A stretch of 64,000 bases of DNA. It comes from Amanita rubescens (Eukaryota > Basidiomycota > Agaricomycetes > Agaricales > Amanitaceae). A program made the position numbers and the translations under genes. The notes beneath the pieces are model-generated. The model made no database searches, was not told where the DNA came from, and saw nothing but the letters and a program-made list of their open reading frames with translations. Each line of letters begins with the position of its first letter. Position 1 is the first letter of the stretch. Positions 11,858 through 25,318 of the stretch are shown in pieces. The stretch covers positions 1-64,000 of the forward strand of contig WION01000009.1 in the NCBI GenBank assembly GCA_015039365.1. The letters run 5' to 3'.

Positions 11858-13467
11858 CAGTGACTCAAATTAGTAATGCATCACGTGGTTTTTGGCGAGA
11901 TTAACCGTTTCATGCACGGCCGGGGGAACTAATGTATATAACCTGTGTCTGCACGTAATAACAAGTAGCCCTACTCCTCGTTGAAGGTGTATTTAAGCCC
12001 CTATGCCTTACCATGAGGAAGAGAAATGTAAAAGAGATAATTGCCGGTGGTGCATTACTTTCCTTTATCAGGTCACCCTGCGAAGGACAACAGCATACTT
12101 AAGCCGTACGGCTTCATCCTTCAATTCAGCGCGTCTAGACGACAAGCTACAACCTCCCTTGCTGCCTTGCGATACTATGGGCTACACTTCTCCGACGAAG
12201 AAAGCCCGTATTGTCCTCCTCAAGACACAGGGCATATCCAACCGCACCATCGCCGCTCACTTCAAAATTGACCCAACTACGGTCGGCCGAATCTTCAAAA
12301 AGTATGGCCAGGCCACAGATTTTTATCGCGTTGGTCATAAGTCTGGCCGCCCGCCTAAACTTACTGATAATGACGTTCGTTATGCTGTTCGCCTGCTCGC
12401 TAGCGGTAAAGCCCGGGACGCATCTGAGGTTCAGCGCAAGTATTTCCCTCATATACATGCGCAAACTATCAGAGAGAGGTTGCGGAAAGTGGGCTTGAAT
12501 GCTTACAAACGTCGCTATAAACCCCTCTTAACTCCAGCTCACATTAAGAAGTGTCTTGCCTGGGCGAGGGAGCATGCAGACTGGACGGCTGATGATTGGA
12601 AAGCCGTGGTCTTCTCTGATGAGTCGAAATTCAATTTGGTGGGGTCCGATGGACGCGAGTGGTGCTGGAGGGCCCCTGGGCAGGAACTGGACCCTCGATA
12701 TGTGACGAAGGTGGTGAAGCATGGTGGTGGTCATGTGATGGTGTGGGGATGTATTACATCATCTGGGCTTGGGCGACTTGTGCGCATCGAAGGGAATATG
12801 AATGCACAGCTCTACATCGAGATTCTCAATGACGACCTCCTCGGCACCTTCAGGGACCTCGGGATGAAGAAGAAGGACGTCTATTTTCAGCAGGATAACG
12901 ATCCAAAGCACACAGCCCGTCTGACTCGAGCGTGGTTCGACGCGAAAAAGGTCGATGTGCTGTCGTGGCCACCGAATAGCCCAGATATGAACATCATTGA
13001 GCATGTCTGGAACTATTTGGATCGTCGTGTGCGCACCAGGGATCCCCTGCATCGCAATGCCACGGAGCTATGGGCCGCATTGCTTGAGGAATGGGGTGGG
13101 ATTGAAGAGGACTACATCGAGCGACTGTATGAGAGTATGCCGCAGCGGGTTCAGGCGCTATTGGCAGCAAAGGGTCGCTACACTCGCTGGTAAACGTTTC
13201 AATTGGTCTCGACGGATGGATCTCGAGCTACATAGACAACTTTCATAGACTTCCGTGATAAATGTAAATAATGCACCACCCATTAGATATTAATCATTGC
13301 TTTGCTTTACAAGGAATTTACAGACTAAGAAGACAGTTATATTTTCAAATTACCCAGCCAATAGGTTGTTTAATCAGGCCGTACCGCGACGATTGACTCC
13401 GATACAACAGCGCGGTGGGCGATAAGATGGGAAAAGTCACGTGGGGCGTTACTAATTTGAGTCACTG
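11858..13467 (+). mobile_element. Tc1/mariner element, apparently intact
   Basis: 1610 bp. The inverted termini are CAGTGACTCAAATTAGTAA and TTACTAATTTGAGTCACTG, extending inward to a shared CACGTG-like stretch. It is flanked by TA at 11856-11857 and 13468-13469. The uninterrupted target (GCTTAAGACC on the reverse strand) is present in the other X copy near 29915-29925, which proves the ends. It holds one transposase gene. Confidence 0.93.
12177..13193 (+). CDS. Tc1/mariner-family DDE transposase
   Basis: 338 residues from ATG 12177, which opens MGYTSPTKKARI, the usual start of a homeodomain-like HTH in this family; the frame is open further upstream, but that part lies in the element's 5' flank. 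The N-terminal HTH pair (residues ~1-110) would bind the terminal repeats. The catalytic triad is present: Asp in FSDESKFNL, Asp in FQQDNDPKH and Glu in PDMNIIEHVW, with 34 residues between the second and third acids (DD34E). A WGCITSSGLG motif lies between. There is no stop, frameshift or intron. The protein should cut and paste the surrounding 1.6-kb element into TA sites. Confidence 0.95.
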   Translation: MGYTSPTKKARIVLLKTQGISNRTIAAHFKIDPTTVGRIFKKYGQATDFYRVGHKSGRPPKLTDNDVRYAVRLLASGKARDASEVQRKYFPHIHAQTIRERLRKVGLNAYKRRYKPLLTPAHIKKCLAWAREHADWTADDWKAVVFSDESKFNLVGSDGREWCWRAPGQELDPRYVTKVVKHGGGHVMVWGCITSSGLGRLVRIEGNMNAQLYIEILNDDLLGTFRDLGMKKKDVYFQQDNDPKHTARLTRAWFDAKKVDVLSWPPNSPDMNIIEHVWNYLDRRVRTRDPLHRNATELWAALLEEWGGIEEDYIERLYESMPQRVQALLAAKGRYTRW

Positions 13468-14611: not shown

Positions 14612-14852
14612 AACACGAAGATAAATCCACAAAAGTAGAATTACCCCCTGAATACCACAAATGGAGAAAAGTTTTTGATAAACAAACTGTCGGAATGATT
14701 CCCGATTTCACGACAATGGGATCATGCGATAGATCTAAAAGAAGGGTTTAAACCTAAAGTGGCAAAGAATTATCCATTATCAATTCACGAAGAACAGCTA
14801 ATGAATAAATGGGTCGACAAACAACTCAAAAAAGGTTATATTCGACCATCAC
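14612..14852 (+). pseudogene. Ty3/gypsy pol fragment, 5' part
   Basis: Encodes the segment just before the reverse transcriptase core (PPEYHKWRKVFDK, then KVAKNYPLSIHEEQLMNKWV). An extra A at 14715/14716 shifts the frame. It starts at the edge of element X, so gag and protease are missing. The copia insertion at 14853 splits it from the rest; the reading frame resumes after the second ATCAC at 22984. Confidence 0.8.
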
Positions 14853-15259
14853 TGTTAAATATAGAATTATATTTATAGAATGATTAACTACTGATTGACT
14901 ACAATCAGTGTTACTCACATCGCTCACGTCATCCTTTATGTATGACATAGAGATGACATCATAATGACTTCATTATGATATCATGGTGACATCATGATAG
15001 ACTCATGATCACATCTTATGGTGTGCTTAGCACGCCATATCTTCCCATCTATACTATACGCTTACACATATGTAGACACATATTTGTTCTCTCTTAGTAT
15101 ATAAACCTGTCCTGTATCGTAGAATAGGACAATCCATTCTCTTCCTCTTACTATCACTACTACGCCGAAGGGTAGTGCTAAGATCATATCGCAATAGGTA
15201 AGCTATTGCACCTGCTCATGCTGTGGACACGCTCTCGCGTAGACCTGTCTTCTTCGTCA
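14853..15259 (+). repeat. copia 5' LTR
   Basis: A TATATAAA box at 15098-15105 should place transcription start around 15130. A strong splice donor (AATAG|GTAAGC) follows at 15198, downstream of the presumed start and inside the LTR. No ATG lies between the presumed start and the donor. Confidence 0.95.
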
Positions 15260-15271
15260 GGTTATGGGCCC
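15260..15271 (+). promoter_or_regulatory. Primer-binding site, tRNA-iMet anticodon-arm type
   Basis: GGTTATGGGCCC directly abuts the LTR. It is complementary to GGGCCCAUAACC, the anticodon stem-loop of initiator tRNA-Met (anticodon CAU). Drosophila copia is known to use the same internal site with a cleaved tRNA half. A conventional match to a tRNA 3' acceptor end is not seen here. Confidence 0.7.
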
Positions 15272-16165
15272 CGCCGTCGATATTGCCAGGACCCACATCG
15301 CCGCTCGCTTGCTCGTCATCCGACATGATGTCCCACTGGTATAGTATCGCAGCGAGCCTGATATGGTCTTATCATCTTGATATAACTAATCCTTGATATG
15401 GCATATGCGCTAATGACATGCGCCCGGACCCTAGGGCTTTAGGGGGATCTCCTAGACACCCAGGGATAAGGGTACTACCTATGTTTCTCGACGCTGGCAT
15501 GGCAACGTCGGCCCCCACAGAGTTTTACTTGCCCTCTGTGATGTGACTGGGGTATTCATGCACGATATAACATCATAAGCCCTTAGAGGCTTTATAATAC
15601 AATATGGCTCGTATATAGAAACTTCTAGTATAAAGGACGTGCTGACACCTCATTGTGGGTGGTACACGCAGTCTATTAAGGATGCGCCCTTAGGGACTCC
15701 TTTAATCGGAATGATCATTAGGATCATTCTAAGTTTGGGCTCTATGGTAATCCCATAATCCCATTTAGAAGTTTCATATTGATTACCGGTCGTGCTTATA
15801 TAATGGTCTGGGGGGTTTATGGACCAGACATTATTTCTATTTACAATCGCAACGGGTAAAACCGTGGTTCGCCCAAGAGCGCTAGAGCCAGCGATTGATT
15901 TTGCATGTCATTTACAGCATTCAGGGATAATCCGAGCTTTCAAGACCGAGTGGACCTGTGGACCTGAGCTTTATCAAAGCTTGGCTTGTAACTAAGTTAT
16001 TCAGGGTCGGTTGGTTTAACCGAATATGGACTGTACTCATAACCGAGGAACTCTATATAGTCTGACATTCTAGTCAATGGCACCCTGGTAACTTAATAAA
16101 GACGAATTAGACTTTTAGCTTTAATTAAGCTTTAAGCTCATTAAATTCTCTTTTAGGAAAGAAAA
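15272..16165 (+). other. copia leader, no coding frame recognised
   Basis: About 890 bases with many stops in all frames and several upstream ATGs, the first pair at about 15325. It ends with a polypyrimidine-AG acceptor (TTCTCTTTTAG) at 16156. It may be intronic in a spliced transcript using the LTR donor at 15198, and may hold packaging signals in the unspliced one. Confidence 0.4.
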
Positions 16166-16708
16166 CTGGATTCCGAAACTAGTACTCCGCTACCAGTTTA
16201 CGAAGCCGAAGGAGAATCATTTCCTCCTACCCGGAGATTACCTCCTTCTTACGACGCTCCAATCCCACCATTTCCCTTAATCTTAGGGGACCGGACTTTT
16301 ATTGATACACCGGCACCAATTCCATCTTCGTCCTATTCTAGGACGATAGTTCGTGTTGTCAACCCTGACACCAGATTCGGTGTCACAACTCGTGGACCTG
16401 TCACAGTTCACGATCGAAGAGATCACTTCCTAGCCGCGCGACTTAGAAACGGTCGTACCTTACAAGACGAAATAATACATCGTCGTCGACAAGCAGCTAT
16501 CGAAGAAGGTGTTACACCCACCTTAGATCTTTGGATTCCACCCAGGGGCACTTCAGTAGCCCAACACATAGCAAATAGGCGTACACGCCGTAATCTCGAA
16601 AGAGATAACCAAGAGGTCGAAAACCTCGAAAATCAAAGAAACTTCCGTTTCTTTTGGCGTCTTTTAACCGCCTATATTATAATCATCACCTCCGCCTTCC
16701 TCGTCTAA
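16166..16708 (+). CDS. Candidate non-AUG ORF upstream of gag (PPSY motif, tail anchor)
   Basis: The frame is open from 16157 to the TAA at 16706-16708, one base before the gag ATG. No ATG occurs in any forward frame between 16157 and 16709. The best near-cognate start is CTG 16166 (AAAACTGGA, A at -3 and G at +4), giving 180 residues. Residues ~8-35 are proline-rich with LPVY and PPSY, the latter a WW-domain/Nedd4-type ligand. The middle is basic. The last 19 residues (FFWRLLTAYIIIITSAFLV) are a likely membrane tail anchor. A splice acceptor ends at 16156. I know no copia protein like this; a membrane-linked, ubiquitin-ligase-recruiting role is only inferred. It could also be a fused N-terminal part of Gag in a relative. 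Confidence 0.5.
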   Translation: MDSETSTPLPVYEAEGESFPPTRRLPPSYDAPIPPFPLILGDRTFIDTPAPIPSSSYSRTIVRVVNPDTRFGVTTRGPVTVHDRRDHFLAARLRNGRTLQDEIIHRRRQAAIEEGVTPTLDLWIPPRGTSVAQHIANRRTRRNLERDNQEVENLENQRNFRFFWRLLTAYIIIITSAFLV

Positions 16709-16709
16709 A

Positions 16710-18095
16710 ATGTCTAACGACTTAACGATCCCTAGTTCCATTCCCGTTTTGAATGGAACTAACTATAAAGAATGGGAACGCATGATGCGTTTCCTATTAC
16801 AAACCAAAGGTTTATATCGGTACCTAAAAACCGATTATGTTCGTCCAAGACGGATAACGCCGTTGGAACAATTCTATCTGGATACAGGGGTTCAAGCCTT
16901 TGTTCCAGCTGTTCCAGCAACAGCAGCAGTTCCGGAAACGGAAACTGAAGATGCGATACCCGCAATGCCGGCACAACCGGCACAACCCGCCATCACTCAA
17001 CAAATGATTGATGATGCAGAGGCTATCAAAAAGGCCTATGATGATTGGGTCGTCGAGGATGATCGCATCCTCGGATCCATAAACATGAAGTGTACTGCTA
17101 CTATACAGCAGATCAACGAACATGTAGTTTCTGCTCGAGTTCTATGGCAGAACTTAGCAGAACAATACGGTGTGACAACGTCTGCCGGTATATATAATGA
17201 TTTCCAATTAGCAATAAATTGGAAATTCCAAGATAAAAAGGATCCCACACAATCCTTAAACGACCTCCTCGCTATAATAAACCGCTTAGCCTCAAGCGGA
17301 ATTACATTGCCTGCAAATGTACAGGCAATGATTGTACTTTCAGCTGTCCCCCGTCATTGGGACAATTTTGCCGCTGTGGTTCTTGCCACAACAGAACCAT
17401 CGGATCTTACGATCCAAGGGATACTTCCCTTAATTCAGAATGAGTGGCGCCGAAGGCACCCTGAATCTGCCGCGACAGCTAATACGTCGCAACAACAGCA
17501 GCAACCATGGCAACAAGTACGTGGTCGAGGACGAGGACGTGCTCGCGGACGTGGCCGCGGAGCAGGTCGTGGACGTGGGGGGAGGCCTTATTCTAGGCCT
17601 CCACAAGGCGCTCAAACACCGGCTCCTACTGCTCCTCCGGCAAATCAAAATTGGCCGGGTAAAGTTGAGGGCCAAACACGTGGTCCTAACTGGGAAAGGA
17701 ACCGAGAACGCCGAAAGGCAGATGCAGCCGAGAAGAAGGCTGCCAAAGCCGCAGAACATACAATGAGTTCTGCACATACCGTCGCCCGTATTGGGCCTTA
17801 TGACATCACTGAGCCAGTTGCCGGCTCTAGCAAAGGCAAACAAAGAGAAAAGGACGAACAGGACTTTGAGTCCTATAAATCGAACCGAGGAATGGGGATA
17901 TCGTCAGACGATATCGATTACAAAAATATGGATATAGATCAGGAAGCTGAACTATATTATGACGATTATTACTATGAAGATAACGGCGAACAATGGTATG
18001 AAACCATTAAGAAGCTGGAAATGGCTAACTTTCTCTTTATAGAGGCAGCAATAAAATGGTGTTCCCTAAATTGGGACATCATCGTCGTACTATAA
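16710..18095 (+). CDS. copia Gag polyprotein
   Basis: 461 residues from ATG 16710. The N-terminal half fits the copia-type gag capsid family: YKEWERMMRFLLQTKGLYRYL near the start, then LWQNLAEQYGV, SLNDLLAIINRLASSGI and VLSAVPRHWDNFA (residues ~155-230). From about residue 275 it carries an RG-rich block (GRGRGRARGRGRGAGRGRGG) where most relatives have a CCHC zinc knuckle, so RNA binding probably uses this block. A lysine-rich and then an acidic tail follow. The frame is intact. It would assemble virus-like particles in the cytoplasm. It ends about 210 bases before the pol frame, with no direct overlap. Confidence 0.88.
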   Translation: MSNDLTIPSSIPVLNGTNYKEWERMMRFLLQTKGLYRYLKTDYVRPRRITPLEQFYLDTGVQAFVPAVPATAAVPETETEDAIPAMPAQPAQPAITQQMIDDAEAIKKAYDDWVVEDDRILGSINMKCTATIQQINEHVVSARVLWQNLAEQYGVTTSAGIYNDFQLAINWKFQDKKDPTQSLNDLLAIINRLASSGITLPANVQAMIVLSAVPRHWDNFAAVVLATTEPSDLTIQGILPLIQNEWRRRHPESAATANTSQQQQQPWQQVRGRGRGRARGRGRGAGRGRGGRPYSRPPQGAQTPAPTAPPANQNWPGKVEGQTRGPNWERNRERRKADAAEKKAAKAAEHTMSSAHTVARIGPYDITEPVAGSSKGKQREKDEQDFESYKSNRGMGISSDDIDYKNMDIDQEAELYYDDYYYEDNGEQWYETIKKLEMANFLFIEAAIKWCSLNWDIIVVL

Positions 18096-18466
18096 ACTCC
18101 TTCTTTGAACAATCTGTACTATATGATAGTATAAATTATAAAGAAAATTTAGACGAAACCTGCCTCGTAAGAGATAAGTCGTGTGATATTGCCATTTATA
18201 ATGCAAATATGATCGAACGATCATACAATATTGGTAACATGTTTAAGAAGCCTTTTACATGTTTAGCGGTCAATAAAAGAAAATTTAAGGATAAAGTACA
18301 TCCGACATGTCCCTGTCCGGAATGTGTAGAAAACGTACTGGAGATACACTATGGATGTGTGACTCCGGTGCATCCGATCACTTTACCTTTAGTAGGAAAG
18401 ACTTCTCTGAATACAGAGAATTTCCTGCAAATGAAAACCACAGTGTTAAAACTGCTAATGGTTTAG
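18056..18466 (+). CDS. Third-frame linker ORF between gag and pol
   Basis: An open frame of 136 codons lies in a different phase from both gag and pol, overlapping the end of gag and the beginning of pol. It contains CPCPEC shortly before the frame changes to pol. It could be read after splicing of a short intron (GTATGA at about 17996 to an AG at about 18048) or by -1 frameshifting, which would link Gag to Pol. A chance open frame is possible, but its length and position argue for use. Confidence 0.4.
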   Translation: MVFPKLGHHRRTINSFFEQSVLYDSINYKENLDETCLVRDKSCDIAIYNANMIERSYNIGNMFKKPFTCLAVNKRKFKDKVHPTCPCPECVENVLEIHYGCVTPVHPITLPLVGKTSLNTENFLQMKTTVLKLLMV

Positions 18467-21400
18467 ATCGTCTTGAGGGACTTGGCACAGTTATTCTTAA
18501 ACACAAGTTATCCACAGGAGAAACAACGCTCGTAAAGCTCTTCCCTGTCCTTTATATGCCACGGGCAACTGCACGCTTGATTTCAAACGGCAGATTGATC
18601 CGACAAGGATTGACTTGTAAACAAGATGAAAAGATGGTAGTTTTTTCCTTTACAGACTCGGGTAGAACGTGTATCGAAGGACATTATCTTATGCCCGATG
18701 ATACATTAGTTTACGCTCGAGGTAGGATTATAATAATGAATCCTACACTGGTTTCCGGTCCTGGCTTAGCCAACAGGAATTCAAAATTAATTCTTGGAAG
18801 ACCGACAAAGAAACCAAACGCAGAGTCTATAGAAAAATTATTAGACTACGAGACCTGGCATAAACGTTTTGGTCATCCATCTAACGAAGTCTTTTCGAAG
18901 ATACCGTTAAATGTCAATGGATGGAAAGAAGTTATACTTCCAGAAGGAAAACTACGTTGTGAAGGTTGTCTAAAAGGCAAAATGAAGGCAAAACCTTATA
19001 AACTGTCTTCAAAGAGAGCTACTCGTCCCTTTGAGTTACTCCATATGGATCTTATGACCGTACCAGCCATATCTTACCACAAATACAAATATATTGGTGT
19101 TATCGTTGACGATTTCACTTCGTATACGTGGATTGGTTTATTAAAAACCAAAGATCAAACTCTAGAATATTTTACCGGATGGTATAATGAGTTTGTAGAT
19201 CCTAAACAACCTATTTCTCACCTCCGTTCTGATCGAGGGGGGGAATTTGTAAATAAAGCCTTTGAAGAATTCCTTAAATCCAAAGGAATTAAACATCAAC
19301 AGACAGCTCCTTATACCCCACAACAAAATGGTCGCGTTGAACGCATGAATCAGACTTTGTCAGACAAAGCTGAGGCTATGCGATTAGACGCAGGATGTCC
19401 GAAATCTTGGTGGGAGTTCTCATTCAGAACGGCTGTGCATGTGTACAACCGCACTCCCCTAAAACGGACTAAATGGAAGACCCCTCTGGAAAATCTTCTT
19501 AATAAAAAACCAGACGTATCATACTTTCGAGTATTTGGATGTGAAGCCTGGGTATTTATCCCTGATCAACGGAGACCGGATAAGCTGTCCGAGAAATCCG
19601 TTTTATGTACTTTTGTAGGATATGAATCAGGAACCAAAGGCTATAGGTTCATGACGTCGACAAACACACTGGTCATATCCTCCCAGGCTACATTCTTTGA
19701 AAACAGGTTTCCGCGCAAAGGAAAGACTGCAGATATAATTACTGAAGATCTTGGTCCGATCTGGGAGGCGATTCCTCAAGAGGAACCTAACCGCCCTCCA
19801 CAAAATTTGGATTTAGATAACTTACTCCCAGAGAACCGTAGACGTTCTCCGAGCCGTAGACGCTCACCGAGTTTGGATCGAAGGGGTGCATCTCCTGATC
19901 GACAGCAGTCAGACCCTTCTGATGATTCAAACGATGATGATGACGGTGATGAATTTGCCGATCGTCAAAGAGATTTTTTGGATGATAATATCCGAAGGCA
20001 AAGGGAAGAAAGAGAACAAGAAAGACGTGACAATTATCGTAGACAACGCGATGATTGGAAAAAGGGTCAAGGAATTGATAAACAGTCTCGTTTACGAGAT
20101 CAATTCAAACGTCAAATGAGTGATATGTTTAAGAAACGTAAAACTCCTGAACCCTTTAGACGTACTCCCTCTCCACAAATAAAAGAGGAGACTCCTGTTC
20201 CTTCTAGGCCTATAACACCAATACCATATGTATCTAGGCCACCTTCGCCTCGTAGTCCTATGGATGAAGATAATCCCTTCTCTTTAAATCAAAGAGATCG
20301 AGATGAAATAGAAAACCCATTTATGACGGATCGAGAATTTGATCAATTTGAACAACGTCAAAGAGATCGTTTTAGAGAATTTGCTCAGAGACCTAGACCT
20401 CCTCCACCGATCATATCTGATCCTGGTCCACCCTCTGTACAAATAGGTCCTCGCCGTTCTGGTCGTTTTCCAGTCCCAAGGGTACAAAGAGACAACGCGT
20501 ATGGAGATAAAACTCCTGCACAGATAGAAGCGGAAATTCAACAAAAGCGAGATGCTTTAAGAGAACAGTTAAAAGATAAAACTCCGAGTTCTTCGACTCA
20601 GGATCCACCGTCAGCAGACAGGAACCCTGATAGAATGAATGAATCTGCTTCTCTACTCAAAGAAATCTTCGCTTTAAAGTCTGAATTAAAATCTGCAGAA
20701 CATGATCATTTAACCCGAATGATTAATGAATCTGGAAATGAATTCCTTCATTTTCTTCTAAAAGCGGCTGTCCCCCTTGTGGATAATATTCCATATGACT
20801 ATAGAGATATATCTAAAATGCGCTCCAGTAATCCTCAATTGTATAAACAATGGAAGATTGCAATGGATGACGAATTTAAATCTCTTCAATCTAGAGATAT
20901 TTGGGAGTTAGTTGATCTTCCAAAAGGACGAAACCTAATCAGATGTCGTTGGGTTTTCGACTTAAAAACCGATGGACGCAAAAAAGCTCGCGTCGTAGCT
21001 AAAGGTTTTAGTCAACGTCCCGGATTAGATTACGACGAAACATTCTCGCCTGTAGCGAGATATGAAACAATCCGAATACTTCTGGCCACATCAGTGCTTG
21101 AAAACTGGGATATACAAGCCCTAGATGTAAAAACTGCCTTCTTATATGGCGATCTTGATGAAGATATTTACATGGCCCAGCCAGAAGGTTTCGTTGTAAA
21201 AGGACAAGAATCTAAAGTATATAGGCTGAGGAAAGCCATATATGGATTGAAACAGGCATCATATGCCTGGAATAAACAAGCTGATAAATCGTTGAAATCG
21301 TTGCATTTCGAGCGATGCTTGTCTGATTCTGGCGTTTACGTTCGTAAAGGCAAGAATACTATCACGATATGCGTATTGTATGTCGACGATATACTCTTCA

Positions 21401-22554
21401 TGGGAAATGACGATTCCACCATCGTATCCATTAAAAAGAAATTTATGGAGATGTGGGAATGTCGTGATCTTGGAAAGATCAAAGAGTATTTACGAATCCA
21501 AGTCAATTACAACCGTGATTTAGGATTCTTAGTCATAGATCAAGGTCCTTATGCCTTGAAGGTTGTCAAGCGATTTGGACTTGAAGATTGCAAGTCTGTA
21601 CGCACACCGTTACCTGCTGGGTATGCTCCTATAAAGAATGAAGGAGAATGCACACCACAGGAACGTTCTTATTATCAACAGATAATAGGATCCCTTCTAT
21701 ATCTCGCCTTAGGAACTAGGCCTGATATAATCTATGCAGTAATTTTGATGTCCCAATTTTCATCAAACCCGTCCCAAGAACATATCCAAAAAGCCTTGTA
21801 TATAGTCAAATACATTGCTCATACCTTAAACGTAAAAATCGTTTATAGCGCCAAAGGCAATAATAAATTTAGAGCCTACGCTGACGCTGACTGGGCCGCT
21901 GATCGCAATACACGACGATCTATAAACGGTTATGTCTTAATGTTAGCTGGTGGTGCGGTAGCTTGGACGAGTAGAAAACAAAAGACTGTAGCTCTGTCTT
22001 CGACTGAAGCAGAATACATATCTTTATCAGATGCTGCAAGACAAATTGCATGGGTTGAAAATCTATTTTACGAAATAGGTGCACCCATCAAAAGCATCTT
22101 ACTTAGCGTAGATAACCAAGGCGCTATATTTTGGGCACAAAATCCTGCACAAGAACATCGTTCCAAACACATAGATATTCGCTATCATTTCGTTCGCGAG
22201 TTGATCGAGACTAAAAAAGTAGTCCTCGAATACATACCAACCAACGAGCAGAATGCGGATCTCATGACTAAGAATTTATCCTTTGAAAAGGTCAAATTCT
22301 TTAGAGAACGATTGGGACTTTCCTTAGAAGAATATCCGACTTCCATAAATGCATTAATCAAAAGACCAGATAAATTAGAGTCTGAGGAAATTCGTGATTT
22401 GACGAAACTAATTCTTGATTGGCAAAATCTTGAATTAGATGGTATTGATCGTCTATCACACAAGAAGTTGATGGAACTTCTTGATGGTCTAATTGATCAA
22501 CAAGAATCGGATATAGATCCCTTCTATGATGAGAACATCATAGACTTTAAATAA
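18307..22554 (+). CDS. copia Pol polyprotein (PR-IN-RT-RNase H)
   Basis: 1415 residues without interruption. Order: aspartic protease (WMCDSGASDHF, ~residue 19); pre-integrase segment (WHKRFGHPS); integrase with Asp in LLHMDLM (~247), Asp in SDRGGEF (~308) and Glu in NGRVERMNQ; a long charged linker rich in Arg/Asp/Pro (~500-780); reverse transcriptase with IRCRWVFDLK, LDVKTAFLYGDL and YVDD (~1025); RNase H with DADWAADRNTRRSINGY (~1192) and SSTEAEYISL. Every catalytic motif is present, so the enzyme is probably active. The first ATG is only 54 bases before the protease Asp, which suggests translation as a fusion with upstream sequence rather than independent initiation. Confidence 0.93.
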   Translation: MSLSGMCRKRTGDTLWMCDSGASDHFTFSRKDFSEYREFPANENHSVKTANGLDRLEGLGTVILKHKLSTGETTLVKLFPVLYMPRATARLISNGRLIRQGLTCKQDEKMVVFSFTDSGRTCIEGHYLMPDDTLVYARGRIIIMNPTLVSGPGLANRNSKLILGRPTKKPNAESIEKLLDYETWHKRFGHPSNEVFSKIPLNVNGWKEVILPEGKLRCEGCLKGKMKAKPYKLSSKRATRPFELLHMDLMTVPAISYHKYKYIGVIVDDFTSYTWIGLLKTKDQTLEYFTGWYNEFVDPKQPISHLRSDRGGEFVNKAFEEFLKSKGIKHQQTAPYTPQQNGRVERMNQTLSDKAEAMRLDAGCPKSWWEFSFRTAVHVYNRTPLKRTKWKTPLENLLNKKPDVSYFRVFGCEAWVFIPDQRRPDKLSEKSVLCTFVGYESGTKGYRFMTSTNTLVISSQATFFENRFPRKGKTADIITEDLGPIWEAIPQEEPNRPPQNLDLDNLLPENRRRSPSRRRSPSLDRRGASPDRQQSDPSDDSNDDDDGDEFADRQRDFLDDNIRRQREEREQERRDNYRRQRDDWKKGQGIDKQSRLRDQFKRQMSDMFKKRKTPEPFRRTPSPQIKEETPVPSRPITPIPYVSRPPSPRSPMDEDNPFSLNQRDRDEIENPFMTDREFDQFEQRQRDRFREFAQRPRPPPPIISDPGPPSVQIGPRRSGRFPVPRVQRDNAYGDKTPAQIEAEIQQKRDALREQLKDKTPSSSTQDPPSADRNPDRMNESASLLKEIFALKSELKSAEHDHLTRMINESGNEFLHFLLKAAVPLVDNIPYDYRDISKMRSSNPQLYKQWKIAMDDEFKSLQSRDIWELVDLPKGRNLIRCRWVFDLKTDGRKKARVVAKGFSQRPGLDYDETFSPVARYETIRILLATSVLENWDIQALDVKTAFLYGDLDEDIYMAQPEGFVVKGQESKVYRLRKAIYGLKQASYAWNKQADKSLKSLHFERCLSDSGVYVRKGKNTITICVLYVDDILFMGNDDSTIVSIKKKFMEMWECRDLGKIKEYLRIQVNYNRDLGFLVIDQGPYALKVVKRFGLEDCKSVRTPLPAGYAPIKNEGECTPQERSYYQQIIGSLLYLALGTRPDIIYAVILMSQFSSNPSQEHIQKALYIVKYIAHTLNVKIVYSAKGNNKFRAYADADWAADRNTRRSINGYVLMLAGGAVAWTSRKQKTVALSSTEAEYISLSDAARQIAWVENLFYEIGAPIKSILLSVDNQGAIFWAQNPAQEHRSKHIDIRYHFVRELIETKKVVLEYIPTNEQNADLMTKNLSFEKVKFFRERLGLSLEEYPTSINALIKRPDKLESEEIRDLTKLILDWQNLELDGIDRLSHKKLMELLDGLIDQQESDIDPFYDENIIDFK

Positions 22555-22576: not shown

Positions 22577-22983
22577 TGTTAAATATAGAATTATATTTAT
22601 AGAATGATTAACTACTGATTGACTACAATCAGTGTTACTCACATCGCTCACGTCATCCTTTATGTATGACATAGAGATGACATCATAATGACTTCATTAT
22701 GATATCATGGTGACATCATGATAGACTCATGATCACATCTTATGGTGTGCTTAGCACGCCATATCTTCCCATCTATACTATACGCTTACACATATGTAGA
22801 CACATATTTGTTCTCTCTTAGTATATAAACCTGTCCTGTATCGTAGAATAGGACAATCCATTCTCTTCCTCTTACTATCACTACTACACCGAAGGGTAGT
22901 GCTAAGATCATATCGCAATAGGTAAGCTATTGCACCTGCTCATGCTGTGGACACGCTCTCGCGTAGACCTGTCTTCTTCGTCA
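22577..22983 (+). repeat. copia 3' LTR
   Basis: Identical to the 5' LTR except A for G at 22888. It is followed by the target duplication ATCAC. Confidence 0.95.
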
Positions 22984-25318
22984 ATCACAATCTCCACAAG
23001 CGTCTCCTTTCTTTTACGTCGCAAAGAAAGAAAAAGGAGAGTTGAGACCTTGCCAAGATTACCGATACATCAATAGCTGGACAAAACGGAACGCCTATCC
23101 CCTTCCTCTGGTATCCGACTTATTATTAAAACTACGAAAAGCAGAATATTTCTCCAAGTTAGACCTCCGATGGGGTTACAATAATGTGCGAATAAAGAAA
23201 GGCGATGAATGGAAGGCCACGTTCACGACAAACCATGGTCTCTTCGAACCTACCGTAATGCTTTTTGGATTATGCAATTCACCGTCAATGTTTCAAATGA
23301 TGATGAACGAATACTTCTGTGACATGATAGCCGAAGGATGGCTAGTTGTCTACATTGATGACATGTTGATATATGGAGCGGATGAGGCAGAAACAAGGGA
23401 ACGCACTAAGCAAGTCTTGCAACAGCTGAAAGAAAACGATCTATTCCTGAAACTGGAAAAATGCAAATTTGTTGCCAAAGAAGTTGAATTCCTTGGGATG
23501 ATCGTCAAAGAAGGAAAGATCATGATGGACCCCATAAAACTCGCTGGAATCAGTAAATGGCCCGAACCGAAAACTGTTAAACAAATCTGGTCATTTCTAG
23601 GGTTCACAAATTTTTACAGGAAATTTATAGGAAATTACACTGAAATAGTGGCTCTGCTCATGGAACTTACAAAGAAAACAGTTCCCTTCCAATGGGATGC
23701 AGAGTGTCAGAAGGCATTTGACACGTTAAAGGAGAAATTCCTAGAAGAACCAGTTCTAGTTATGCCAGATCCAACGAAACTGTTTTTGTTAGAAACCGAT
23801 GCATCAAATTGGGTGGTAGGAGCCGTCCTGAAACAATGGGGATCTGATGGAGAACTGCACCCATGTGGATTTATCAGTCATCGGTTAAGCGATACCGAAC
23901 AAAGATACCAAGTATACAATCGCGAGTTATTAGCAATAAAGAAAGCCTTTGAAACCTGGAGACACCTTCTTAAAGGAAGCCCGCACACGATTATGATCCA
24001 CTGTGATCATAAGAATTTATCATATTATAAACATCCGCAGAAAATGACCGCCAGACAATCACATTGGTGGCAAGAAATTACGGAGTTTGATATCAAATTA
24101 GAACACGTCCCTGGATCAAAACTCATTCAGGCAGATGCTTTATCGAGACGCCCTGACCATATTAATGAAGAAGAAGCAAAAGCAAAAGAAATCCCACAAA
24201 CCATGATTACTGATGACATGGTTATTGCCGCAATCAATGTATCTTGGGCAGATAAAATCATCAAATTATTGCCACAAGATAAATTTGCTAAAGTTGTAAT
24301 CGATGGTCTTAAACACGAAAAACTACCCCTCCGATCAAAGTTTAATGACTGGAAGAATGACAACGATATTATTCGTTATCAAGGATGTGTTTATGTCCCT
24401 CAAAATGAAGAATTACGAAATGAAATAATCAAATCACATCATGACCCCGTAGTTATGGGTCACCCTGGAAGATTAAAGACACTAGAGCTTATCTGCTGCA
24501 ACTATTATTGGCCTGGAATGACAACAACAGTATCTAAATGGGTCAAAGGCTGTGCCTTATGTCGACAAATGAAGGTCAATACACATCCGATCACACCAGG
24601 TTTGATGCCTATTAAATCCCACGCCACACGCCCATTCAAACAAGTTTCAATGGACTTCATCACAGATCTGCCAATTATTGACGGTTTTGATTCTGTTTTG
24701 ACCATGGTCGATCAAGGCTTAACAAAGGGCGTAATATTCATACCATGCAAAAAATCTTTTACCACTATGGATACCGCCAATTCCTACATCAATGACGTTT
24801 ACAAATGTTATGGGTTACCGACAACTCTCATTTCCGATAGAGGTCCACAGTTTACCTCCAAAGTTTTTGAAGAAATCTGCAAAATCTTCGGAATTGATCA
24901 TAGAAAGTCGTACCGCCTTTCATCCACAAACTGACGGAGAATCGGAACGACTCAATCAGGAGCTAGAAACCTACCTCCAATTATATTGTGTTGATCACCC
25001 AAAACAATGGAAAGATCACCTGCCATTAGCAGAATTCGTGCACAACCAACGCATACATCAATCTACCAAGATGACACCGTTTGAAATCATGTTTGGAATA
25101 GAACCTGTGGCTATCCCCACAGCATTCCTGCAAATCAATGTACCCGCCGCTGAAGACCACTTCAAAGTCTTAACACAAATACGAGATGAAGCTCTCACTG
25201 CACATGAATTAGCAAGGCAGCTAATGACACAACGTGTTAAAGGAAAATCTCCCACCTTCAAAGAAGGAGATCTAGTATGGCTAGACTCAAGAAATCTAAA
25301 AACAGGACTAGTGTTTCT
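22984..25318 (+). pseudogene. Ty3/gypsy pol remnant, 3' part
   Basis: Continues the gypsy pol after the copia insertion. In order: RT core (LRPCQDYRYINSWT, YIDDMLIYG), tether and RNase H (LLETDASNWVVGAVLKQ, IHCDHKNLSYY), integrase HHCC zinc finger (GHPGRLKTLE, CALCRQMK), integrase core (QVSMDFITDLP, SDRGPQFTSK, then ESERLNQELE). An extra T at 24911 shifts the frame just before the last motif. It ends at element X copy 3, before any 3' LTR. With the 5' frameshift, the missing gag and the copia insertion it is dead. No gypsy LTR is recognisable at either side. Confidence 0.9.

What the first reader, a model, noticed from the sequence alone, without database searches (positions are those of the whole stretch)
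16157..16709. ATG-free, tail-anchored PPSY protein frame one base upstream of copia gag
Seen directly: 183 codons stay open from 16157 to the TAA at 16706-16708, gag starts at 16710, and the 553 bases between contain no ATG in any forward frame, whereas eight or nine would be expected by chance. The translation is not random-looking: proline-rich start with LPVY and PPSY, a basic middle, and a hydrophobic last 19 residues. A CTG at 16166 has A at -3 and G at +4. Known: PPxY motifs recruit WW-domain Nedd4/Rsp5 ubiquitin ligases, and retroviral Gag proteins use them for budding. Inference: the copia makes an extra membrane protein by non-AUG initiation and leaves the stretch free of ATG so that scanning ribosomes still reach gag. 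I know of no described copia protein of this kind.
Basis: partly seen in the sequence, partly recalled or inferred. Interest (0 to 1): 0.88.

Follow-up and report, generated by a model that had tools for sequence, protein, structure and literature searches.

The report
Extra membrane protein before copia gag
A fungal copia retrotransposon carries a conserved extra gene just before its capsid gene, apparently started at CTG instead of the usual ATG and kept nearly free of ATGs so that ribosomes can pass through to the capsid gene; a related family has the same layout with a weak ATG.

Summary
The frame is real and is a protein gene. Among 69 other copies in the same fungal genome, 123 of 229 variants are synonymous in this frame (67.6 expected, P 1.5e-15); neither other frame shows an excess. 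Shared-variant dN/dS is 0.18, gag 0.19.

A related copia family (gag 38-40% identical) has its own ORF at the same place, dN/dS 0.17 over six copies, ATG-free inside and ending in a hydrophobic tail. It starts with a weak-context AUG; the window's family has CTG there in 75 of 75 fetched copies.

It would remove all 22 leader ATGs and the primer-binding site, putting ORF0 and gag on one spliced RNA. I infer that ORF0 starts inefficiently and most ribosomes scan on to gag, as in rice tungro bacilliform virus. No RNA or ribosome data were available, so splicing, CTG start and leaky scanning are inferences.

Tail anchor and PY motifs (Rsp5/Nedd4) are sequence readings; function is untested. ATG depletion is supported in the window's family but smaller than claimed (2.6-7.1 expected), and its controls are mixed.

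The parts
14853..15259 (+). 5' LTR (407 bp, ends CA); 5-bp target duplication ATCAC at 14848-14852
   Evidence: 407-bp direct repeat with 22577-22983, one mismatch; flanks read
15098..15105 (+). TATA-box-like TATATAAA; transcription start inferred about 25-35 nt downstream
   Evidence: read; the same AGTATATAAACCTG stretch is conserved in the related family
15197..15203 (+). inferred 5' splice site G|GTAAGC (intron begins 15198), inside the LTR
   Evidence: GT intact in 72 of 72 rows that cover it, window included; 4 of 76 rows are gapped there; aligned GGTAAGCTAT in the related family
15260..15271 (+). primer-binding site GGTTATGGGCCC, half-initiator-tRNA type (type recalled, not tested)
   Evidence: starts at the LTR end; a 16-mer around it occurs 253 times in the genome (118 forward, 135 reverse), reversed control 0
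15198..16156 (+). inferred leader intron (959 nt): holds the PBS and all 22 ATGs between the TATA box and ORF0
   Evidence: no reading-frame constraint in any frame over 15204-16140
16137..16144 (+). branch-point-like CTCATTAA
   Evidence: exact in 59 of 76 rows, close variants in the other 17; the same 8-mer precedes the related family's acceptor in L080
16155..16156 (+). inferred 3' splice site (TTCTCTTTTAG|G)
   Evidence: AG intact in 76 of 76 rows
16166..16168 (+). inferred CTG start codon (A at -3, G at +4)
   Evidence: 75 of 75 fetched and aligned copies; 5 copies have a one-base insertion just upstream of it that leaves the downstream frame untouched
16166..16708 (+). ORF0: 180 codons from the CTG, TAA stop 16706-16708; contains no ATG
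   Evidence: purifying selection in this frame only; 67 of 69 non-degenerate copies open
16190..16201 (+). LPVY motif
   Evidence: 69 of 69 copies; TPLPVY also in 6 of 6 copies of the related family
16241..16252 (+). PPSY motif
   Evidence: 68 of 69 copies, the other gapped there; not in the related family, which has VPTY elsewhere
16655..16705 (+). hydrophobic C-terminal tail (WRLLTAYIIIITSAFLV), putative tail anchor
   Evidence: most hydrophobic 17-mer; AlphaFold2 C-terminal helix, block pLDDT 70-87 over residues 151-183
16710..18095 (+). gag (PF14223); frame interrupted in this copy
   Evidence: Pfam; by my count 32 other listed copies have a gag-pol frame of 1,935-1,978 codons (a capped list)
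18295..22554 (+). pol frame, stop to stop (integrase core, RVT_2; protease-type DSG by eye)
22577..22983 (+). 3' LTR, followed by target duplication ATCAC (22984-22988)

Best explanation
ORF0 is an accessory gene of a fungal Ty1/copia element (coding: shown). Inferred: the primary transcript starts in the 5' LTR and part of it is spliced from 15197 to 16157, removing the primer-binding site and every leader AUG. Shown from sequence: an RNA spliced so would have no AUG before gag. Inferred: scanning ribosomes start at the CUG at 16166 with low efficiency and make a roughly 180-residue protein, while most pass through the AUG-free ORF and start at the gag AUG, which has A at -3. The related family does the same with a weak AUG (CCTATGA, in one of six copies CCCATGA). 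The product is probably a membrane-anchored protein with its N-terminal part in the cytosol. My best guess at function is that its PY-type motifs bring a Rsp5/Nedd4-type ubiquitin ligase to membranes where capsids gather; that last step is speculative (about 0.35).
For: Frame-specific purifying selection: 123 synonymous of 229 variants against 67.6 expected, P 1.5e-15, other frames no excess; stop-making variants 1 against 8.5 expected, P 0.0015; shared-variant ratio 0.18, gag 0.19. Related family: 69 synonymous, 37 non-synonymous variants in six copies, ratio 0.17, other frames 1.5. No frameshift inside ORF0 in 69 copies; the four length changes are of 3 or 6 bases. CTG in 75 of 75, and one-base insertions just upstream of it in 5 copies that fall in two gag subgroups. 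Splice signals at matching places in both families, and no coding constraint in the intron. ATG avoidance: synonymous shuffles expect 3.4 and 2.2, observed 0 and 0 (P 0.0045 and 0.029); ATG-making variants 5 against 11.3 expected, P 0.024; no internal ATG in 6 of 6 related-family copies. Stop-to-gag spacing varies (1 nt in most rows, 2 in L015, 3 in L063, 6 in the related family), which favours scanning over coupled reinitiation.
Against: No transcript, ribosome or protein data. The intron (959 nt) is long for a fungal intron (recalled). The ATG evidence is mixed: a control stretch, the related family's gag fragment, is depleted as much (4 against 6.4, P 0.023) as its ORF0; with pol codon usage P of 0 is 0.010 and 0.053; ATG-making variants shared by 2-4 copies are not depleted (4 against 4.5), and among variants in two or more copies seven other trinucleotides are made more rarely, relative to expectation, than ATG. 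11 of 69 copies carry an ATG in ORF0: 1 of 25 with a gag-pol frame of at least 1,935 codons against 10 of 44 others (P 0.038), but P 0.11 with a looser cut. L074 keeps an open 1,959-codon gag-pol frame with a broken ORF0. The ORF0 proteins of the two families align only weakly (hhalign probability 2.5%, P 0.018; local alignment z 1.2). PPSY is not shared by the related family.
Confidence: 0.8

Rival explanations
1. Termination-reinitiation: ribosomes translate ORF0 and some restart at the gag AUG just past the ORF0 stop.
For: Stop and gag AUG are 1 nt apart in most copies and 6 nt apart in the related family.
Against: Spacing differs between copies (2 nt in L015, 3 nt in L063) and families; reinitiation does not need an ATG-free ORF; [quoted passage not shown]
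Confidence: 0.1
2. ORF0 is the N-terminal part of Gag, joined by +1 frameshifting or stop readthrough.
For: The gag frame is open back to 16683 and overlaps ORF0.
Against: The window's family would need a frameshift while the related family, whose ORF0 is in the gag frame, would need readthrough of a TAA; gag has its own AUG with A at -3 in at least 74 of 76 rows.
Confidence: 0.03
3. The ATG-free stretch is only a 5' untranslated region kept clear for gag, and the open frame is chance or a regulatory upstream ORF whose peptide does not matter.
For: Absence of ATG is what a scanned leader needs.
Against: dN/dS of 0.17-0.18 in two families in that frame alone requires a selected peptide.
Confidence: 0.02
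4. ORF0 starts with an AUG brought in by a different upstream exon.
For: 22 ATGs lie in the inferred intron and other exons cannot be ruled out without RNA.
Against: No frame of the intron is constrained; exon 1 has no ATG in 65 of 67 copies and ends in a TAG that is in frame across the junction; one-base insertions upstream of the CTG occur in 5 copies; the related family's AUG lies in exon 2, just after its acceptor.
Confidence: 0.08
5. ORF0 is a fusogen-like cell-to-cell transfer protein, as proposed for Drosophila MDG1 sORF2, rather than a ubiquitin-ligase adaptor.
For: Small selected membrane-type protein upstream of gag with arginines beside the hydrophobic part (PMC11952523 passages).
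Against: The hydrophobic segment is at the very C-terminus with nothing after it, and neither start gives an MGxxxS/T signal; length is 180-187 against 63-107 residues.
Confidence: 0.12

Closest known systems
Rice tungro bacilliform virus and badnavirus ORF I / ORF II (plant pararetroviruses)
   Same: Non-AUG or weak-AUG ORFs kept free of internal AUGs so that scanning ribosomes reach the capsid-polymerase ORF (PMC5902531, passages read)
   Different: There a ribosome shunt bypasses the leader; here splicing is inferred to remove it. Proteins were not compared by sequence. This is a fungal LTR retrotransposon.
Polerovirus/luteovirus ORF3a (P3a)
   Same: Small non-AUG-started membrane protein upstream of the coat protein on a subgenomic RNA, with leaky scanning to later ORFs (PMC4422679, passages read)
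   Different: P3a is about 5 kDa with a transmembrane region towards its N-terminus, in an RNA virus; ORF0 is about 180 residues with a C-terminal one.
sORF2 of Drosophila MDG1-group (Ty3-type) retrotransposons
   Same: Selected small transmembrane protein encoded upstream of gag (PMC11952523, a preprint; abstract and passages read)
   Different: No evidence of splicing there; about 70 residues; myristoylation signal in some; different superfamily; canonical start codons.
Arabidopsis EVADE (Ty1/copia) spliced short GAG RNA
   Same: Copia elements can use splicing to make a separate, well-translated GAG mRNA (PMC8892269, passages read)
   Different: There the intron lies between GAG exon 1 and exon 2 and splicing is coupled to early polyadenylation; here the inferred intron is the leader, upstream of ORF0 and gag.
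Retroviral PPxY late domains and Rsp5/Nedd4 adaptors
   Same: PPSY and LPVY motifs (motif knowledge recalled, and given in the finding)
   Different: Here the motif sits on a separate membrane-type protein, not in Gag; binding untested.

Membership tests
Ty1/copia LTR retrotransposon | LTRs, 5-bp target duplication, integrase before RVT_2 reverse transcriptase, copia gag domain | tested here: met
   LTRs and ATCAC duplication; PF14223 in gag; rve then PF07727 in pol
Genuine protein-coding gene | Frame-specific purifying selection in related copies | tested here: met
RTBV-type leaky-scanning polycistronic mRNA | Upstream ORF with inefficient start codon and no internal AUG, downstream AUG in a better context | tested here: met
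   CTG or weak AUG; no internal ATG in the window and 6 of 6 related-family copies, and in 58 of 69 other copies of the window's family; gag AUG with A at -3
RTBV-type leaky-scanning polycistronic mRNA | Strengthening the upstream start reduces downstream translation | not testable with these tools
   Needs reporter assays
Spliced leader (intron 15198-16156) | Canonical and conserved donor, branch-like and acceptor signals; intron without coding constraint | tested here: met
Spliced leader (intron 15198-16156) | Junction reads in RNA | not testable with these tools
   No RNA data available
MDG1 sORF2 / FAST-like fusogen | Transmembrane segment after a short (about 30-residue) ectodomain, followed by a polybasic region; myristoylation signal in most | tested here: not met
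   Hydrophobic segment is the last 17 residues; nothing follows it; no MGxxxS/T start (features from passages of PMC11952523)
Tail-anchored membrane protein | Single hydrophobic segment at the C-terminus with few residues after it | tested here: met
   17-residue hydropathy 1.83 (window) and 2.41 (related family), next best outside the tail 0.61 and 0.21; hydropathy only, no topology program
PY-motif Rsp5/Nedd4 adaptor | Conserved [LP]PxY motif | tested here: met
   LPVY in both families, PPSY in one; motif definition recalled
PY-motif Rsp5/Nedd4 adaptor | Binding to WW domains | not testable with these tools
   HECT-domain matches exist in this genome (31), which says nothing about binding
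Any known Pfam family or solved structure | Significant match | tested here: not met
   No Pfam family for window ORF0; best for the related ORF0 E 0.11, below cut-off; PDB best E 0.64 and none

The most novel reading that the evidence does not exclude
A clade of fungal copia elements makes a CUG- or weak-AUG-started, tail-anchored protein that carries the PY-type budding motif as a separate protein apart from Gag. It would give capsids a membrane and ESCRT-pathway address, allowing release or cell-to-cell spread without an envelope gene. Splicing would sort RNAs into genomes (with primer-binding site) and mRNAs (AUG-free bicistronic leader).
Probability: 0.2. Interest if true: 0.88.

Novelty: new variant of a known kind. 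Interest (0 to 1): 0.68.

Why it matters
If right, it is an accessory membrane protein in the copia superfamily encoded upstream of gag, and a case of AUG-free leaky scanning in a fungal LTR retrotransposon. My searches of open-access papers turned up neither (two gave no paper, for the others I saw the listings of the top 8 to 15). Two related families solve the same start-codon problem differently (CUG against weak AUG), a natural experiment on translation control. It parallels the recent report of membrane proteins upstream of gag in insect retrotransposons and raises the question whether some fungal retrotransposons leave the cell. Gene finders that need an ATG would miss such genes.

Tried and rejected
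Fusion with Gag, a chance open frame, and an AUG from another exon were considered and rejected or ranked low (see rivals). Two other copia groups of this genome were looked at and have different layouts: family C (one copy, L081 with L090) and family A (one copy, L079 with L089, and part of another, L082) have long ATG-rich leaders with a longer ORF that is unlike ORF0, so the ATG-free design is so far seen only in the window's family and the related one. Sequence homology of the two ORF0 proteins is only suggestive; I rest the link on position, layout and selection. No tree of the families was built; 'related' rests on gag identity in a capped list. The AlphaFold2 model (mean pLDDT 47.6) was too weak for a fold search, so none was run. 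The region just downstream of the CTG folds better than shuffles (z -2.56), which could aid CUG recognition, but conservation was not tested and it is not used as evidence. The bacterial promoter scan and tRNA scan gave nothing useful. Distribution in other fungi could not be tested.

Full report
What was checked. The open frame, the missing ATG, the CTG context, the motifs and the hydrophobic end are all in the sequence as described. The expected number of ATGs was overstated: 7.1 by base composition, 2.6 by dinucleotides, 3.4 when synonymous codons are shuffled (0 observed, P 0.0045). Met makes up 2.1% of the window's gag and pol frames and is absent from the 180 codons of ORF0 (P 0.021).

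The element. It is a Ty1/copia element with 407-bp LTRs at 14853-15259 and 22577-22983 (one mismatch) and a 5-bp duplication ATCAC. By eye it sits in a Ty3-type retrotransposon. gag matches PF14223 and pol has integrase before RVT_2. This particular copy has an interrupted gag-pol frame; by my count 32 other listed copies have one of 1,935 to 1,978 codons (a capped list).

Copies in the same genome. The window lies in a 75.7-Mb genome (G000). The ORF0 protein has 122 matches there, many of them fragments. By my count of that list, 89 (window included) cover at least 182 of 183 residues and 81 of those have no stop. I fetched and aligned 75 copies besides the window. Six are degenerate (L071-L076) and were dropped from the selection counts, leaving 69.

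Selection. Relative to the window, 229 variants occur between 16166 and 16705; 123 are synonymous in the ORF0 frame against 67.6 expected from the same mutation classes (P 1.5e-15). The other two frames give 64 against 72.4 and 41 against 67.6. Stop-making variants number 1 against 8.5 (P 0.0015). The intron shows no excess in any frame (all). For variants shared by five or more rows the non-synonymous to synonymous rate ratio is 0.18 in ORF0 and 0.19 in gag, against 0.88 and 2.17 in the other ORF0 frames; for single-row variants it is 0.46 in ORF0 and 1.11 in gag, where some rows are rearranged (70 rows with the window). From the CTG, 67 of 69 copies are open to the normal stop, two have a premature stop (L031, L058), none has a frameshift, and the four length changes are of 3 or 6 bases. 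One dropped copy, L074, has a broken ORF0 but an open 1,959-codon gag-pol frame. Among the 26 fetched copies with a gag-pol frame of at least 1,935 codons, ORF0 is thus intact in 25.

The start. The CTG at 16166 is present in 75 of 75 copies. It is the first near-cognate codon of the frame within the 70 codons scanned and the only in-frame CTG. Five copies have one extra base just before it (L019, L048, L057, L063, L069). These fall into two gag subgroups, one copy at 98% and four at 75-77% identity to the window over 16773-17250. So the frame upstream of the CTG can shift while the frame downstream does not, which fits a start at the CTG.

The leader. Between the TATA box and the frame lie 22 ATGs, which would block scanning. 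They all fall between a donor GTAAGC at 15198 (GT intact in 72 of 72 rows that cover it) and an acceptor at 16156 (AG intact in 76 of 76), with a branch-like CTCATTAA before it (exact in 59 of 76). The stretch also holds the primer-binding site at 15260 (its tRNA type is recalled). If it is an intron, spliced RNA of the window copy has no AUG before gag and cannot be primed for reverse transcription, while unspliced RNA can. Splicing is inferred, not shown.

The related family. A second copia family (L080 with L088, and ORF0 stretches of five more copies; gag 38-40% identical to the window's over its first 227 residues) has the same layout: TATA stretch, GGTAAGC donor, the same primer-binding site, CTCATTAA, TTTTAG acceptor (TTTAG in one of the five further copies), then a 187-codon ORF, and gag six bases after its stop. 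Its ORF starts with ATG in a poor context (C at -3, A at +4), the first AUG of the inferred spliced RNA of the copy read in full; the next AUG is gag's, 570 bases on. The six copies read have no ATG in between. Their ratio is 0.17 (69 synonymous, 37 non-synonymous variants) against 1.5 in the other frames. By my count 20 of 23 full-length matches have no stop. Both proteins carry TPLPVY, a G-TL-DEI--RR stretch and a hydrophobic end, but statistical support for homology is weak: hhalign probability 2.5%, P 0.018; 15 of 2000 shuffles reach the global score and 259 of 2000 the local one, and 99 and 317 of 2000 when the tail is kept as a block.

ATG avoidance. The synonymous shuffle gives 3.4 expected in the window (P 0.0045) and 2.2 in the related family (P 0.029), 0 observed in both; back-translation with pol codon usage gives P 0.010 and 0.053. 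Of the two control stretches, window gag is not depleted (19 against 17.7) but the related family's gag fragment is (4 against 6.4, P 0.023), so that family's own result is not specific (all). Variants that make an ATG in ORF0 number 5 against 11.3 expected (P 0.024); in gag 37 against 36.4 and in the intron 19 against 15.8. The depletion is not seen in variants shared by 2-4 copies (4 against 4.5), and among variants in two or more copies seven trinucleotides are made more rarely, relative to expectation, than ATG. Of 69 copies, 11 carry an ATG in ORF0: 1 of 25 with a gag-pol frame of at least 1,935 codons and 10 of 44 others (one-sided P 0.038), or 2 of 27 against 9 of 42 with a threshold of 1,880 (P 0.11). 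Frame lengths are; L026 has no listed gag and counts as not open.

Mechanism. The simplest account is leaky scanning on a spliced bicistronic RNA: a poor start for ORF0, no AUG inside it, and a gag AUG with A at -3 in at least 74 of 76 rows. Rice tungro bacilliform virus does this with an AUU-started ORF and AUG-free ORFs (PMC5902531, passages). Coupled reinitiation is less likely because the stop-to-AUG distance varies between copies and families.

The protein. No Pfam family or solved structure matches significantly. AlphaFold2 gives low confidence except for a C-terminal helix. The last 17 residues are the most hydrophobic stretch in both families (hydropathy 1.83 and 2.41; next best outside the tail 0.61 and 0.21) with arginines before it, which suggests a tail anchor with the rest in the cytosol. 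LPVY is in 69 of 69 copies and PPSY in 68 of 69. A link to Rsp5/Nedd4 ligases is a reading of motifs, not a result.

Context and novelty. Membrane proteins upstream of gag are reported for insect MDG1 elements (PMC11952523, a preprint; abstract and passages), non-AUG membrane ORFs upstream of coat proteins for luteovirids (PMC4422679, passages), and spliced GAG RNAs for plant copia (PMC8892269, passages). In a survey of copia in filamentous ascomycetes I looked only at passages for six terms and saw no extra ORF mentioned (PMC5445492). My searches found no description of this combination; they cover open-access full text only, and I saw only the top of most listings. I therefore file it as a new variant of a known kind.

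Noticed in passing
L081 and L090 (G000 contig C51), family C copia: Another copia family has a different, longer ORF upstream of gag (324-471 codons in the stop-free copies, ATG-rich). A 232-residue piece of it has 14 full-length matches in the genome, 13 without a stop. No Pfam match.
   Followed up: partly
L079 and L089 (G000 contig C34), family A copia: A third copia group has, in the one copy read there, a 445-codon open frame upstream of gag with no Pfam match. Accessory ORFs before gag may be common in these fungal copia elements.
   Followed up: partly
window 15370-15841: The middle of the inferred intron holds long near-identical blocks between the two families (within a 78% alignment) although gag is 38-40% identical, suggesting a conserved RNA element such as a packaging signal, or recombination.
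   Followed up: no
window 16773-17250: The N-terminal part of gag differs strongly between copies (diversity up to 0.30 per site) while LTR, leader and ORF0 stay at 0.01-0.06 (66 rows): two gag types with nearly the same ORF0, probably recombination or diversifying selection.
   Followed up: partly
window 16710-22554: The window's own gag-pol frame is interrupted, unlike 32 other listed copies with frames of 1,935-1,978 codons.
   Followed up: partly
window 22967-24934: The copia element abuts an open frame that looks by eye like Ty3-type pol, so it is probably inserted in such an element; not searched.
   Followed up: no
window 11997-13193: 398-codon open frame that looks by eye like a Tc1/mariner transposase.
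   Followed up: no
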